DNA of 64,000 nucleotides, taken from the NCBI GenBank assembly GCA_963169655.1, contig CAUJCM010000004.1, positions 124,001-188,000 of the forward strand, in the 5' to 3' direction. A program made the translations under genes and the position numbers. Source of the stretch: Patescibacteria group bacterium. GTDB lineage: Bacteria; Patescibacteriota; Gracilibacteria; UBA1369. This document shows, in pieces, positions 5,481 to 30,847 of the stretch; within the stretch, counting starts at the first letter, position 1; each line of letters begins with the position of its first letter. Under the pieces are notes generated by a model. That model was given only the letters and a program-made list of their open reading frames with translations. It did no database searches and was not told the origin of the DNA.

Positions 5481-6080
5481 ATGAAGAGAGGAAAATTGAT
5501 CACAATTTATGGCATTAACAACATTGGAAAATCAACACAATGTAAAATTCTTTTAGAGTATTTAAAAAAAGAGGGATTTGACGCTATTTACTTAAAATAT
5601 CCAGTTTATAGTGTTGAGCCTTCAGGTGTGTATATCAATCAAGTGCTAAGGAACTCAGGAAATAAGCAAAATATAAGTGAAGATGAATTACAAATGTGGT
5701 ACACAATTAATCGTTATCAATTTGAGCCTGAATTAAAGCAAATGCTTGAAGAAGGAAAAATTGTTATTGCTGAGGACTATATTGCAACTGGACTAGCTTG
5801 GGGAAGTGCAAAAGGTGCAAGTCTTGATTGGTTAATGGAAATGAATAAATATCTCTTAAAAGAAGATTTAGCAATATATTTAAAAGGTAAAAGACATTTA
5901 CAAGCTAGAGAATCTAATCATTTGCATGAAAACAATGAAGATTTAATTGAAGCTTGCCAATTTATTTATGATAATTTGGCAATAAAGTTTAATTGGACCA
6001 AGATAAATGTTAAGGAATCAATTGGTGAAACATCTGAGGATTTGTGGAATGTAATTAGTAAATTTTTAAAAGAAAAATAA
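5481..6080 (+). CDS. Thymidylate kinase-family protein
   Basis: P-loop 'YGINNIGKSTQ'; 'EDYIATGLAWG'; next to dut. Confidence 0.8.
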   Translation: MKRGKLITIYGINNIGKSTQCKILLEYLKKEGFDAIYLKYPVYSVEPSGVYINQVLRNSGNKQNISEDELQMWYTINRYQFEPELKQMLEEGKIVIAEDYIATGLAWGSAKGASLDWLMEMNKYLLKEDLAIYLKGKRHLQARESNHLHENNEDLIEACQFIYDNLAIKFNWTKINVKESIGETSEDLWNVISKFLKEK

Positions 6081-24988: not shown

Positions 24989-25076
24989 GCTCGGGTGGCG
25001 AAATTGGCAGACGCGCTACGTTCAGGTCGTAGTGACTTAAAAAGTCGTGGAGGTTCAAGTCCTCTCCCGAGTACCA
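24989..25076 (+). tRNA. tRNA-Leu (anticodon CAG), 3' CCA encoded
   Basis: GCTCGGGTGGCGAAATTGGCAGACGCGCTACGTTCAGGTCGTAG...long variable arm...GGTTCAAGTCC...CCCGAGTACCA. Confidence 0.95.
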
Positions 25077-25201
25077 AAACATTGATTGTCTTTAAGCTCA
25101 TAAAATACTGATAGTTTTAACCAATGTTAGAAACAAATATTAATTTTTCCTGTGCCTTTTAAATTATGATAGTGATATAATAGCTAGATTAAATATTTTT
25201 T

Positions 25202-26098
25202 ATGTGGATATTAATAGCACTTTCAACAACTATTTTAACTGGTATAACAACTATTATTGATGATGTTTTAATTAATAAACTCTTTAAAAATACATTCGCT
25301 TTAATCTTCTTGGGAATGTTAATAGATATGTGTTTTTTAAGTTTAGTTTTTATTTTTGGTAAACCTACTATTCCCCCACTCCACTTCTTACCTTTTATTT
25401 TTCTGTCGGGACTTTTAGAAGTCATATATTTATATCCTTACTATAAAGCCCTAAAGATAGATGATAGTTCTAATGTATCTTCTTTATTTTCTTTAGGTAG
25501 AGTTTTTATACCTATTTTTGCTTTTATTATTATTGGAGAAAAAATAGCCATATCTCAGTATTTAGGATTTGCTTTAATAATAATTAGTGGATTCTTTTTA
25601 ACTTTAAGAGATTTTAAAAGATTAAAACTAAATAAATCTTTTTTATATATGATGGGAGTTGCCATTATAGTGGCTTTAGATTCATCAATCTATAAATATT
25701 TGCTAAATGATCTATCGTGGAGTACCACTTATGTTTCAGTAATGATTGCCTCATTTTTTTGTTCACTATTTTTCTTACTTAATATTAAAACAAGGAAAGA
25801 AGTTTATACAAATCTGAAACAAGGTATGAAAGGTAATTTAAAGTATATAACTTTAGAGGAAACTTTTTATTTTTCTCAATCTGTTTTAGCTACATTTTTA
25901 CTGTCACTCGTACCAGTAACAATTGCTAGAGGACTTACCGCTTTAACTCCATTTATTGTTTTATTTTTAGGTATTTTATTAAGAAAAATTTATCCTAAAA
26001 TTTTTAAAGATTTAATTGAAATAGAAAATTTAAGAAGAAAATTATTTTTATTTGCGATCAGTTTTATTGGTGTTATTTTAATGGTGATTAATAATTAA
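25202..26098 (+). CDS. EamA/DMT-family transporter-like membrane protein
   Basis: Around ten hydrophobic segments; 'SLFSLGRVFIPIFAFIIIGEKIAISQYLGFALIIISGFFL'. Confidence 0.8.
   Translation: MWILIALSTTILTGITTIIDDVLINKLFKNTFALIFLGMLIDMCFLSLVFIFGKPTIPPLHFLPFIFLSGLLEVIYLYPYYKALKIDDSSNVSSLFSLGRVFIPIFAFIIIGEKIAISQYLGFALIIISGFFLTLRDFKRLKLNKSFLYMMGVAIIVALDSSIYKYLLNDLSWSTTYVSVMIASFFCSLFFLLNIKTRKEVYTNLKQGMKGNLKYITLEETFYFSQSVLATFLLSLVPVTIARGLTALTPFIVLFLGILLRKIYPKIFKDLIEIENLRRKLFLFAISFIGVILMVINN
26021..26098 (+). repeat. Direct repeat copy A (3' end of DMT transporter gene)
   Basis: 78-nt ungapped match (7 mismatches) to 28942..29019. Confidence 0.9.
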
Positions 26099-26105
26099 AG
26101 AAATT

Positions 26106-26576
26106 TTAAGGAATAGTTAAAATAGATTTATGAATATTTTCTATATAATCTTTTAGATTTTTTCTTTTATACACACCAATATAAGAAGGATGATGGACTG
26201 GAATAATAAAATATTCAGATTTATAAAATTGATATTGATAAGTCTTAGGGAAATTTATATTTAAGTTAAAAATTTTGGCTAAACTTTTTGTTACTAAACT
26301 TCCTAAAGCTATGATTATTAATGGATTTAGTTCTTTAATACGATTTTTCAATTCTTTTTGATTTTGAAAAATTTCACCAATGGTAGGATATCTTATCTTA
26401 TTATGTTCATTTAGAGGTCCATAATTAACTAGATTATCAAAATGATGTTCATAATTATTTAAATAGATAATAGCTTGATCTAAAATTTGTCTACTCAAAA
26501 ACTTTTTATCAAATGCTTTTACTGAATCTTTTTGCATTGAAATACCAAGCCAAAGAATTTTTCTATTTATTTTCAT
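26106..26576 (-). CDS. Uracil-DNA glycosylase-superfamily-like protein
   Basis: 'LWLGISMQKDS...', 'LNPLIIIALGSLVTKSL', 'YFIIPVHHPSYI'; ATG 26576 (track 26606) overlaps preceding gene's end by 14 nt. Confidence 0.6.
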   Translation of the reverse strand: MKINRKILWLGISMQKDSVKAFDKKFLSRQILDQAIIYLNNYEHHFDNLVNYGPLNEHNKIRYPTIGEIFQNQKELKNRIKELNPLIIIALGSLVTKSLAKIFNLNINFPKTYQYQFYKSEYFIIPVHHPSYIGVYKRKNLKDYIENIHKSILTIP

Positions 26577-27174
26577 TGTTAAAGTTAATAAACTTGTTAA
26601 TTTCATCTCTTATTTTAGATATATTGTCATGGATAGGTATATTATCGGAGTTATCTATTTCTAAAACACTTTGATTAATACTAGATAAATATTTTGAAGC
26701 CTTTTCAAATAATTTAAGCTCAGTTTCTGGTTCAAAATCTTTCTCAAATCTTGTTATTTTATTTCTAAGTAATAATCTTTGTTTAATATTATTGGAATCA
26801 CAATATACAATAATATTTAAATTAGGTTTTATTATATGAGAATTGATTTGTTGGATAAAACTTATATTTACATTATCTAATACTTGATAAACTAATGAAG
26901 ACACAAAATATCTATCAGAAATAACTATTTTTCTGGCTTTTAGATTAGGCTCTATTACTGTTTTTATATGATGATATCTATCTGCAGCTATTAGACAAGC
27001 AAGAGATAATCCGTGAATTTCATTATGTAAGTTTCGAATTAGTTGACCAATTTCACTTTCAGTAGGTTCTTTAGTAATAATAAAATTAAGCCCATCTTTT
27101 TTTAGACTCTTACTTAGATGTTTAATTAAGGTAGATTTACCTGCTCCATTTGGTCTATCTAGTGAAATTAACAT
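26563..27174 (-). CDS. tmk: Thymidylate kinase-family protein (second in window)
   Basis: 'MLISLDRPNGAGKSTLIKHL', 'FIITKEPTESEIGQLIR', 'AADRYHHIKTVIEPNL', 'VISDRYFVSSLVYQ'. Confidence 0.85.
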   Translation of the reverse strand: MLISLDRPNGAGKSTLIKHLSKSLKKDGLNFIITKEPTESEIGQLIRNLHNEIHGLSLACLIAADRYHHIKTVIEPNLKARKIVISDRYFVSSLVYQVLDNVNISFIQQINSHIIKPNLNIIVYCDSNNIKQRLLLRNKITRFEKDFEPETELKLFEKASKYLSSINQSVLEIDNSDNIPIHDNISKIRDEINKFINFNNENK

Positions 27175-27177
27175 ATG

Positions 27178-28510
27178 TTATTGTTTATTAAGCTGGTTCG
27201 TTAATTCAATATATTTCTCTATTAAATAATCTCTTTCGATATTATCTTCTTCCAATTTAAAATTAAAGTGATCTCTTCCAGTTTTTCGACTTAAACGAGA
27301 ATCATGGATAATGTTCTTATTATAAGTTTTTTGAAAATATTGCTCATATAGTTTTCTGTATTTTCATATGGTCTATATCTAAACACACTAAACCTAATTT
27401 TAGCTTGCTTTTTATTATCAAGATCTTTAAGGCTTAAAGCTAACTGATATGTCATTTCCATATCAACTTCACTTTCCATTGGAAAACCATAAATAAGAAA
27501 AATCTTAAGATTTATTCCTGCTGTAATGATTTTATTAACTACTTCTTTTATTTTAGAAACATCTGACACTTTATGGATTTTTTTAAGGATATTTGGTGAA
27601 CCAGACTCAACCCCTATAAATAGTTCATAACACCCAGATTTTTTTAATTTGATTATATCCTTTAATTCTATATTTTTAAATGTATTTATATGTGCCATTG
27701 CTCTCCATTCTAATAATTTAAAATTATTAAATAATGAAGCTGCTTCTAATATGGTACATTTATTTGTTCAAAATAGATCATCAAGTACCCATAATATATG
27801 ATAAATTACTTGTTTCATCCAACAATTGATGAATTTCTTGTTGTATATTATTTAATGACCTTCTACGAGATTTCACATTAATATTTCTAGTAATAGCTGA
27901 TCCACAAAATGCACAATTATAAATACATCCTCTCGTAGCAACTATACAAGCTTCTAAAAGATTATTATGTAATCCAACTCCATTGTTTAATAAAATGGTT
28001 CTATCTATGCTAGCAGTATCTATGTTTTGGTTATAAAACTCTGAAGATGAATCTATAATAAATAATCTATTATTTTTAATATGTCGATTAGGTATTAAAC
28101 GTGTATTTTTATTAAGCAGATCTGATATAATCAATTCTCCATCTCCTAAAACAACATCAATACTATTTGAAACATTTAAGTTTAGAATTTCAGTTTCAAT
28201 TCCTTTTAGACCTGCTCCCCCAATAATAAATTTAATAGAGGAAGCAAAATTTTCAATAATTGAAATAACTTCATTTTTATTCACTGTGAATATATTTAGA
28301 GCTACCATTTGTAGTGGTGACTTTTGGATATATTCAATTGTTTTTTATCACTCATACCCAGGTTACTAGCATCTAGTAAGTCTACTTCAAAACCATGGTT
28401 TTTTGCACTAGTAGCTACTTGTGCTAAACCTAAAGGAGGTACATAATCTTCACTGATAAATTAAAATCCTTATCTGATAATGGACTATTTATGAATAATA
28501 TCTTATCCAT
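27178..28510 (-). pseudogene. Decayed B12-binding radical SAM protein
   Basis: Fragments in shifting frames: 'VPPLGLAQVATSAKNHGFEVDLLDA', 'CIVATRGCIYNCAFCGS', 'IGVESGSPNILKKIHK', 'SRLSRKTGRDHFNFKLEEDNIERDYLIEKYIEL'; several frameshifts plus an in-frame TGA. Confidence 0.8.
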
Positions 28511-28545
28511 TTTAAAATTTATATCTACATTAATATTAAAATAAT

Positions 28546-28830
28546 ATGTTATTATTGCAAGATGTTTTAAGAGAACTACAAAAAATAAAAAATACTGCAA
28601 TTTTACTACAAATGATTAAAGTATCTGAGGAGATGGGAGAATTATCAAATGAAATTCTACACCATTACAAACATCAAAGAAAAAGTAAAATTCAAAATAG
28701 TAGTCTTTCTAATGAACTAGCAGATGTTATTTTTTCTGTTTTATTACTTGGAATCTTACTAGAAATAGATATTGATTTATCTTTAACTAGTAAGTTGAAC
28801 ATTTTAAAAGAAAGATATCAAACAAATTAA
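28546..28830 (+). CDS. MazG-like nucleotide pyrophosphohydrolase domain protein
   Basis: 'KVSEEMGELSNEILHHYK', 'NELADVIFSVLLLG'. Confidence 0.75.
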   Translation: MLLLQDVLRELQKIKNTAILLQMIKVSEEMGELSNEILHHYKHQRKSKIQNSSLSNELADVIFSVLLLGILLEIDIDLSLTSKLNILKERYQTN

Positions 28831-28914
28831 ATATGAGTTAAAAATATAGATTAACTAAATTAATGTATTAATTTACAAGAAATAAATAAAAAAAAGATAA
28901 ATTTTCTATTAAAA

Positions 28915-29019
28915 ATGAATTCAAAAAATTTTATAGATTCAATAGAAAATCTAGGTAGAAAATTATTTTTATTTGCGATCAGTTTTGTTGGTGTTATTTT
29001 AATGGTAATCAATAACTAA
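28915..29019 (+). pseudogene. Remnant of DMT transporter C-terminus
   Basis: MNSKNFIDSIENLGRKLFLFAISFVGVILMVINN* vs ...IENLRRKLFLFAISFIGVILMVINN* of 25202..26098. Confidence 0.85.
28942..29019 (+). repeat. Direct repeat copy B
   Basis: See 26021..26098. Confidence 0.9.
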
Positions 29020-29027
29020 ATATTTCT

Positions 29028-29104
29028 CGGGGTGTAGCGCAGTTGGCTAGCGCGTACGCATGGGGTGCGTGAGGTCGAGGGTTCAAGTCCCTCCACTCCG
29101 ACCA
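29028..29104 (+). tRNA. tRNA-Pro (anticodon GGG), 3' CCA encoded
   Basis: CGGGGTGTAGCGCAGTTGGCTAGCGCGTACGCATGGGGTGCGTGAGGTCGAGGGTTCAAGTCCCTCCACTCCGACCA. Confidence 0.95.
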
Positions 29105-29128: not shown

Positions 29129-29581
29129 ATGAAACTATTTTTCAAAAAAAGGCCTTTAAATTGGATAACCATATTTTGGTATTTTTCCAATGTTTTGATT
29201 TTCTTATATGCAATGGCATTGATGTATTCTAATTTGACTATTAATGGAACAGATTTTGGCATATTTTTTAGGTATATTAGAGCCATTCCAGGAATATTAG
29301 TATTATTAATTAGTACGATAGCTGAAATTTTTCTGCAACAATTTGAGAGAAATAAGAAAAACACTTTAAATGATATAATTAAAAGTATTACTGATATTCC
29401 CAAAGATGCAGCTAGCCAAGGACTCTTAATCTTTTACCTTAAATTTTTATGGCGAACGGTGATTGTTGGTCTTTTAAGAGCTACTGTGCTACTTATAGTA
29501 TCTTTTATTTTAATTATAATTTTATTCGGTATCTACCAGATCTTGATGGGTATAATTCAATTAATTATGAATATATTCTGA
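29129..29581 (+). CDS. Hypothetical membrane protein
   Basis: Track start 29060 lies in tRNA-Pro; ATG 29129 preferred; several TM segments; TGA stop. Confidence 0.65.
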   Translation: MKLFFKKRPLNWITIFWYFSNVLIFLYAMALMYSNLTINGTDFGIFFRYIRAIPGILVLLISTIAEIFLQQFERNKKNTLNDIIKSITDIPKDAASQGLLIFYLKFLWRTVIVGLLRATVLLIVSFILIIILFGIYQILMGIIQLIMNIF

Positions 29582-29758: not shown

Positions 29759-30847
29759 ATGAATGATAAACAATTACACTTACCACAAAATGATTTTAGA
29801 GGCTTAACTAGCGATGAAAATATATGTACTGATGACTTATCAAATAAAGAAAATATAATCCATGATTCAGTTTCAAATAAACAACTACTACTTCCAATTG
29901 ATGAGTTTAGTGATTTACGTTTTGAAAAATCAGTTCCTCAAGTTGAATTAAACTTAAGAGAATTAGAAGAAAATACAAATGAAATGTTTAATTATCTTAA
30001 TTCTAGAGAGATAGAGGAATTAGAGAAAATATATTTGCAAAGTGCGAAATATCTTGAAGAAATTCTTAAGACTAATGATGATAGTGAAATTCAAAAGATT
30101 TTAAACTCAATACCAAATGACCTGCATATCAATATTGCTTTATCATTGATAAATCAAGGTAAAACCGAACTTTTACTAAATCACTTTAGCTATTTCTGTG
30201 GTATACCTGAAAAATATCATCTAAGCCTCTTATTTGAAATTATGTATTTAGGACCTAATCAGGCTTCTATTTTGATAAAGTATTTTTCTAAATTAAGTGG
30301 GATTCCGGCTAATCTTCATTTATTTATCGTTAATAAATTTGTAGATGAAGGATATGGTTTTCAAGTTGCTTCTAATTTTGATGCTTTCTATGGGATTCCA
30401 AAAGAGGTTCACTGGGATATTATTAAAGAAATCTGCGAAATGAATGGAGGTTGGATAATATTACAAAATATCACTAAATTTTATTTAACTCCTGATCATT
30501 ATTTTGAATTTATTCAATCTGTTATTAATAGAGGTGAAAGTTTTGCTGCATTAGAAGGAATTGCAAAGCTATATCAAAATGACCCTGAAAATCAACTTAA
30601 ATTAGCAGAGAAGTTAATCAAGGCTGGTTATGGGCAGTGGTTTGCAATCTATTTTGGAATTACTCTTGCTAAAACTTTACCCAAAAAAGATCATCTTGCT
30701 GTTGCTGACATGTTAATACAAAATGGAGAGGCTAAAATTTTAAGAAATTATATAGACAGCTTTAATGGCATTCCTCAACCTATTAAAAAATTATTTTTAC
30801 TTTTAGGAGAATTTAATGACTATATGGAGGAAAAAAAGAAATTATAA
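29759..30847 (+). CDS. ~31-aa helical-repeat protein (paralog of 18147..19604)
   Basis: 'GIPANLHLFIVNKFVDEGYGFQVASNFDAFY', 'GIPKEVHWDIIKEICEMNGGWIILQNITKFY'. Confidence 0.8.
   Translation: MNDKQLHLPQNDFRGLTSDENICTDDLSNKENIIHDSVSNKQLLLPIDEFSDLRFEKSVPQVELNLRELEENTNEMFNYLNSREIEELEKIYLQSAKYLEEILKTNDDSEIQKILNSIPNDLHINIALSLINQGKTELLLNHFSYFCGIPEKYHLSLLFEIMYLGPNQASILIKYFSKLSGIPANLHLFIVNKFVDEGYGFQVASNFDAFYGIPKEVHWDIIKEICEMNGGWIILQNITKFYLTPDHYFEFIQSVINRGESFAALEGIAKLYQNDPENQLKLAEKLIKAGYGQWFAIYFGITLAKTLPKKDHLAVADMLIQNGEAKILRNYIDSFNGIPQPIKKLFLLLGEFNDYMEEKKKL

What the first reader, a model, noticed from the sequence alone, without database searches (positions are those of the whole stretch)
26021..29019. 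~2.9 kb segment bounded by duplicated 3' end of a transporter gene beside tRNA-Pro
The last 78 nt of the DMT gene (26021-26098) recur at 28942-29019 with 7 mismatches, ending 8 nt before tRNA-Pro. Most differences are silent or conservative (IENLRRKLFLFAISFIGVILMVINN vs IENLGRKLFLFAISFVGVILMVINN). This suggests the copies diverged as functional alleles before one was truncated, e.g. by integration or recombination of a foreign allele plus cargo (UDG-like, tmk, radical SAM, MazG).
Basis: partly seen in the sequence, partly recalled or inferred. Interest (0 to 1): 0.6.

Follow-up and report, generated by a model that had tools for sequence, protein, structure and literature searches.

The report
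Decaying foreign nucleotide-enzyme cassette beside tRNA-Pro
Between two tRNA genes of a tiny bacterium sits a foreign, already broken four-gene package of nucleotide- and DNA-handling enzymes, bracketed by a duplicated end of a transporter gene; related packages ride on phages and plasmids, so it looks like a scar of gene transfer and a lead to a little-known mobile system.

Summary
In detail: an 80-nt direct repeat (26020-26099 / 28941-29020, 73/80 identical) is far beyond chance and has sharp edges. Between the copies lie only four genes: a UDG-superfamily gene, a second thymidylate-kinase-like gene (tmk), a B12-binding radical-SAM gene (rSAM) and a MazG gene. The segment is foreign: UDG and rSAM have no match in 379 other genomes of the phylum, and this tmk is not the host's own. 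A family relative (G012) has the same two flanking tRNAs 430 nt apart, with neither transporter nor cargo between. The cargo belongs to a recurrent mobile cassette: tmk-rSAM-UDG on a phage-like IMG/VR contig, and AlkA-like glycosylase-rSAM-tmk-NUDIX/MazG on Streptomyces phage SF3 and plasmids. PADLOC's candidate defence models PDC-M51A/B match weakly. The window copy is decaying: the rSAM is split over several frames with an in-frame TGA, and the tmk has Arg for the first Walker-A glycine. The repeat is best read as recombination between the resident transporter gene and an allele carried by incoming DNA. Integrase, homologous recombination and old gene duplication cannot be told apart without same-genus genomes.

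The parts
24989..25076 (+). tRNA-Leu (CAG), left border of the variable interval
   Evidence: ARAGORN; the same tRNA lies 430 nt from tRNA-Pro(GGG) in G012:C103
25202..26098 (+). EamA/DMT transporter gene, 298 aa, intact
   Evidence: Pfam PF00892 9e-14; 51% orthologue in G008 beside a different tRNA-Leu
26020..26099 (+). Repeat copy 1: last 25 codons of DMT plus stop
26106..26606 (-). UDG-superfamily gene, 166 aa; HPS motif present, family-4 motif A degenerate; ends 6 nt after repeat copy 1
   Evidence: Pfam UDG 2.9e-8; 36% to L106 UDG, E 1e-23; no match in 379 other phylum genomes
26563..27174 (-). Foreign thymidylate-kinase-like gene; first Walker-A Gly replaced by Arg
   Evidence: Pfam 7.5e-32; alignment; codon; PDC-M51B 5.5e-13; the host's own tmk is at 5481-6080
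27190..28510 (-). B12-binding radical-SAM gene, broken: collinear homology in several frames, in-frame TGA at 27768-27770
28546..28830 (+). MazG-like pyrophosphohydrolase, 94 aa
   Evidence: Pfam MazG 9.2e-5; PHROG 2.5e-5
28941..29020 (+). Repeat copy 2: orphan 3' end of a DMT allele; may now lie in the upstream control region of tRNA-Pro (inference)
29028..29104 (+). tRNA-Pro (GGG), right border

Best explanation
The tRNA-Leu(CAG)/tRNA-Pro(GGG) interval is a spot where genes come and go. In this lineage it took up a DMT transporter gene and then a mobile cassette of UDG-like, TMPK-like, B12-radical-SAM and MazG genes. The cassette most likely arrived on DNA that also carried a DMT allele about 91% identical at its 3' end. 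Recombination within or beside that stretch left a full-length DMT gene on the left and an orphan 78-nt 3' end next to tRNA-Pro. Shown: the repeat, the foreign cargo, the related cassettes on phages and plasmids, the decay, and the relative with the tRNAs close together and no cargo. Inferred: the order of events and the type of recombination. Inferred function of intact cassettes: the radical-SAM enzyme alters a nucleotide, the TMPK-like enzyme activates it, the NUDIX/MazG enzyme clears the triphosphate, and the glycosylase removes or reads the altered base in DNA. That would serve anti-phage defence or inter-phage competition. In this bacterium the function is probably lost.
For: Repeat and coding-like differences. 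Foreign cargo: among 380 phylum genomes UDG and rSAM are found only in the window's own; the tmk's best match in the order is about 30% and in the phylum mostly 30-37% (up to 44% over short stretches), while a separate native tmk exists. Lowest 0.7% of windows for GC and top 3-5% for k-mer deviation. G012 synteny: tRNA-Leu(CAG), 430 nt, tRNA-Pro(GGG), then the same pepF region. Cassette relatives: L106 tmk-rSAM-UDG; SF3 and seven Streptomyces plasmids with rSAM and tmk adjacent; 10 of 14 viral tmk loci carry rSAM, 8 an AlkA-like gene, 9 NUDIX. AlkA-family assignment by profile against PDB, E 1.5e-7. Decay.
Against: No recombinase in the segment and no exact empty DMT-tRNA-Pro junction seen. 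The composition signal is weak: DMT (24.6% GC) and the genes downstream (25.1%) are as AT-rich as the cargo (24.2%). The MazG here shows no detectable similarity to the cassette MazG of Streptomyces, and gene order and orientation differ (MazG is divergent). The UDG-containing form was found on one viral contig only. Function is inferred from gene content alone.
Confidence: 0.6

Rival explanations
1. Classic integrative element: a tyrosine recombinase inserted an element at an attB in the DMT 3' end, the element's copy restored the gene (as known for icd-targeting coliphages), and the integrase gene was later lost or acted in trans.
For: Complete gene on the left and truncated copy on the right, differences that look coding, gene end beside a tRNA. 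The related cassette in SF3 lies next to a site-specific integrase gene.
Against: No integrase or fragment in the segment; one tyrosine recombinase in the genome, no serine resolvase. No matching attP-like stretch in viral contigs, phages or plasmids.
Confidence: 0.25
2. Old duplication: a second DMT gene stood next to tRNA-Pro and decayed to its last 25 codons, kept because it carries upstream sequence that tRNA-Pro needs; the cassette lies between the two by chance.
For: The repeat ends 8 nt before tRNA-Pro. Weak upstream similarity continues in frame for about 15 codons in some alignments.
Against: The upstream similarity is not convincing in shuffles. No promoter-like site above background was found in the second copy.
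Confidence: 0.2
3. Assembly chimera of two strains, or another assembly artefact.
For: The same contig holds a ~4.4 kb stretch of mostly 47-63% GC in a 28% GC genome, so a chimera elsewhere is possible. The copies differ as strain alleles would.
Against: The cargo is compositionally close to its surroundings, fills the interval compactly and is flanked by long intact genes. The order of the flanking tRNAs and pepF is confirmed by G012 synteny.
Confidence: 0.07

Closest known systems
PADLOC candidate PDC-M51 (PDC-M51A radical-SAM, PDC-M51B TMPK-like)
   Same: tmk hits PDC-M51B (5.5e-13) and the rSAM fragment hits PDC-M51A (3.9e-5); the two genes are adjacent
   Different: Weak scores; extra UDG and MazG genes; the Streptomyces rSAMs miss M51A at 1e-3; the rSAM is broken here
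rSAM-tmk-NUDIX/MazG cassette of Streptomyces phage SF3 and Streptomyces plasmids
   Same: Homologous rSAM (25-34%) and tmk (36-40%), a DNA glycosylase gene and a pyrophosphohydrolase gene
   Different: AlkA-like glycosylase instead of UDG; different order and orientation; intact genes
tmk-rSAM-UDG on viral contig IMGVR_UViG_3300002552_000382 (L106)
   Same: All three genes homologous: 41%, 35-43% and 36% identity
   Different: Gene order tmk-rSAM-UDG instead of rSAM-tmk-UDG; no MazG match within the 7.4 kb searched; intact
Integrative elements that target the 3' end of a gene and duplicate it (icd-type; from general knowledge)
   Same: Anatomy of the repeat: whole gene on one side, truncated 3' end on the other
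   Different: No integrase; empty site not seen
Prokaryotic viperins with nucleotide kinases (general knowledge)
   Same: Logic of a radical-SAM enzyme paired with a nucleotide kinase; PADLOC VakA profile hit 4.6e-7 (what VakA stands for was not established)
   Different: A B12-binding radical SAM, not viperin; glycosylase and pyrophosphohydrolase partners

Membership tests
PDC-M51 candidate defence system (PADLOC) | TMPK-like protein matching PDC-M51B | tested here: met
   5.5e-13, 47.1 bits, residues 3-173; PADLOC's own cut-off is not shown
PDC-M51 candidate defence system (PADLOC) | Radical-SAM protein matching PDC-M51A | tested here: inconclusive
   Fragment 3.9e-5, 20.6 bits; gene broken; Streptomyces homologues do not hit at 1e-3
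PDC-M51 candidate defence system (PADLOC) | Two genes adjacent and both intact | tested here: not met
   Adjacent and co-oriented, but the rSAM is split over several frames with an in-frame TGA
PDC-M51 candidate defence system (PADLOC) | Protects against phage | not testable with these tools
   Needs an experiment
Integrative element at a gene 3' end | Direct repeat that restores the gene on one side | tested here: met
Integrative element at a gene 3' end | Integrase within the element | tested here: not met
   The main ORFs of the segment are assigned and none is a recombinase; single tyrosine recombinase on another contig; no resolvase
Integrative element at a gene 3' end | Empty site in relatives | tested here: inconclusive
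   G012 has tRNA-Leu-430 nt-tRNA-Pro without cargo, but also without DMT; no same-genus genome held
Family-4 uracil-DNA glycosylase | Score over the family cut-off and catalytic motif A | tested here: not met
   TIGR00758 27.8 bits against a cut-off of 125.3; motif A degenerate, HPS motif conserved; Pfam UDG superfamily cut-off passed; fold model uninformative, pLDDT 37

The most novel reading that the evidence does not exclude
DNA glycosylase + B12-radical-SAM + TMPK-like kinase + NUDIX/MazG is an undescribed mobile system that makes an altered deoxynucleotide and then detects or excises it in DNA, with interchangeable glycosylase types (UDG-like or AlkA-like), used in phage-host or phage-phage conflict; the window holds a fossil of it in a Patescibacterium.
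Probability: 0.3. Interest if true: 0.8.

Novelty: new variant of a known kind. Interest (0 to 1): 0.5.

Why it matters
It documents gene gain by recombination in an ultra-small bacterium and marks a tRNA-tRNA interval as a turnover spot. The cargo links unrelated hosts (a Patescibacterium, a phage-like metagenome contig, Streptomyces phages and plasmids) through a recurring set of enzymes that points to altered-nucleotide chemistry. PADLOC lists only a two-gene candidate near it, and no paper found in the held library describes the set. Intact copies on Streptomyces elements make the function directly testable.

Tried and rejected
Exact empty junction: only one relative of DMT in GTDB contigs (36%) and no same-genus genome. 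tRNA-Leu 3'-end duplication as the att site: none in the window or in G008. An attP-like stretch in viral contigs, phages or plasmids: none (the weak phage hits are chance-level). Upstream extension of the repeat: not convincing. A promoter in the repeat: not above shuffles. Other islands of the same kind on contig C4: the inspected repeats are paralogous genes, shared protein starts or short repeats. UDG scan of viral contigs found only L106 and a weak hit with no tmk or rSAM nearby. The fecal phage record with a UDG relative carries no tmk or rSAM. AlphaFold model of the UDG: pLDDT 37, discarded. Literature: no paper on PDC-M51 or on the four-enzyme set; PMC10853773 was checked and is not relevant.

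Full report
The repeat. The 80-nt direct repeat is real, its second copy scores E 3e-27 in the genome, and it is sharply bounded: homology upstream of 26020/28941 does not beat shuffles convincingly, and on the right it stops one base after the stop codon. Seven differences fall in six codons, four of them synonymous, none at a second position; such protein conservation is expected in 2.4% of random 7-change mutants. This favours two coding alleles over drift of a dead copy, but modestly.

What lies between. Only four genes: UDG-superfamily (Pfam 2.9e-8), thymidylate-kinase-like (7.5e-32), a broken radical SAM (4.1e-8 on one fragment) and MazG (9.2e-5). The UDG stop lies 6 nt from repeat copy 1. 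NCBIfam TIGR04013 matches the two rSAM fragments in successive parts of one profile, and an intact homologue aligns collinearly in separate frames (residues 18-64, 67-239, 239-386) with a TGA at 27768-27770; read by eye, the C-terminus continues in a further frame. Long intact ORFs around it (up to 1260 aa) argue against general sequencing error. The tmk has Arg at the first Walker-A glycine, where five homologues have Gly.

Foreign origin. The genome is a 1.0-Mb, 6-contig assembly; the only record hit for its DMT gene in GTDB contigs is a Harrisonbacteria MAG at 36%, so I take it to be a Patescibacterium. Among 380 genomes of the phylum, UDG and rSAM match only the window's own. The host has its own tmk at 5481-6080, and the segment's tmk matches order members at about 31% identity or less. 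Composition is only mildly odd, and its neighbours are equally AT-rich.

The site. In G012, of the same family, tRNA-Leu(CAG) and tRNA-Pro(GGG; 97% identical) stand 430 nt apart with one small ORF (DUF2200-like by eye), followed by the same pepF region as in the window. In G003 the position upstream of tRNA-Pro holds tRNA-Ala and another small gene. So the interval beside tRNA-Pro turns over, and DMT itself is probably a newcomer: the G008 orthologue sits 3' of another tRNA-Leu.

The cassette. tblastn finds rSAM and tmk side by side on Streptomyces phage SF3 and on seven Streptomyces plasmids. In five inspected loci the order is glycosylase-like gene, rSAM, tmk, then NUDIX (four) or MazG (one). 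The first gene, annotated hypothetical, matches 3-methyladenine DNA glycosylases by profile (E 1.5e-7). A scan of viral contigs with a tmk alignment gave 14 loci: 10 with rSAM, 8 with the AlkA-like gene, 9 with NUDIX (L112 is SF3 itself and L109/L110 are near-identical, so the independent count is lower). L106 carries tmk-rSAM-UDG, all homologous to the window genes, beside an ORF that looks like a terminase by eye. PADLOC hits are PDC-M51B 5.5e-13 and PDC-M51A 3.9e-5.

Mechanism. For the structure: recombination between resident and incoming DMT alleles with cargo, either single-crossover homologous recombination, one-ended homology with an illegitimate second junction, or a recombinase since lost. 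The data do not choose. The genome has one tyrosine recombinase and no resolvase. For the cassette: altered nucleotide made, activated, policed and excised or sensed. This is inference from gene content; defence is favoured because of the PADLOC match and carriage on phages and plasmids, but phage DNA modification is not excluded.

Verdict. The duplication is an ordinary sort of scar; the cargo is the interesting part.

Noticed in passing
Outside the window: G000:C4 ~89,100-93,450 (locus L058): A stretch of mostly 47-63% GC (one AT-rich dip near 90.0 kb) in a 28% GC genome with lipoprotein-like and Gly-rich genes: recent transfer or assembly chimera.
   Followed up: partly
L029 6457-7477 (G008) against window 24989-26098: DMT orthologues lie 3' of different tRNA-Leu genes (TAG in G008, CAG here), while the window genome's tRNA-Leu(TAG) keeps the HIT/sigma neighbourhood but is followed by a dinB-like gene.
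   Followed up: partly
Outside the window: G000:C4 240091-240337 and 243200-243446: 98% identical 247-nt direct repeats at the starts of two large neighbouring proteins.
   Followed up: no
29129-29581 and 29759-30847: Two ORFs after tRNA-Pro with no Pfam, NCBIfam, PHROG or PADLOC match; the first has no relative in the family.
   Followed up: partly
L106 811-1842 and 4499-5482: The phage-like contig carries a 343-aa membrane-type protein before the tmk-rSAM-UDG genes and a terminase-like ORF just after them.
   Followed up: no
L107 and L111: Viral loci with the tmk relative and a MazG gene about 900 nt downstream but no detectable rSAM: possibly another version of the cassette.
   Followed up: no
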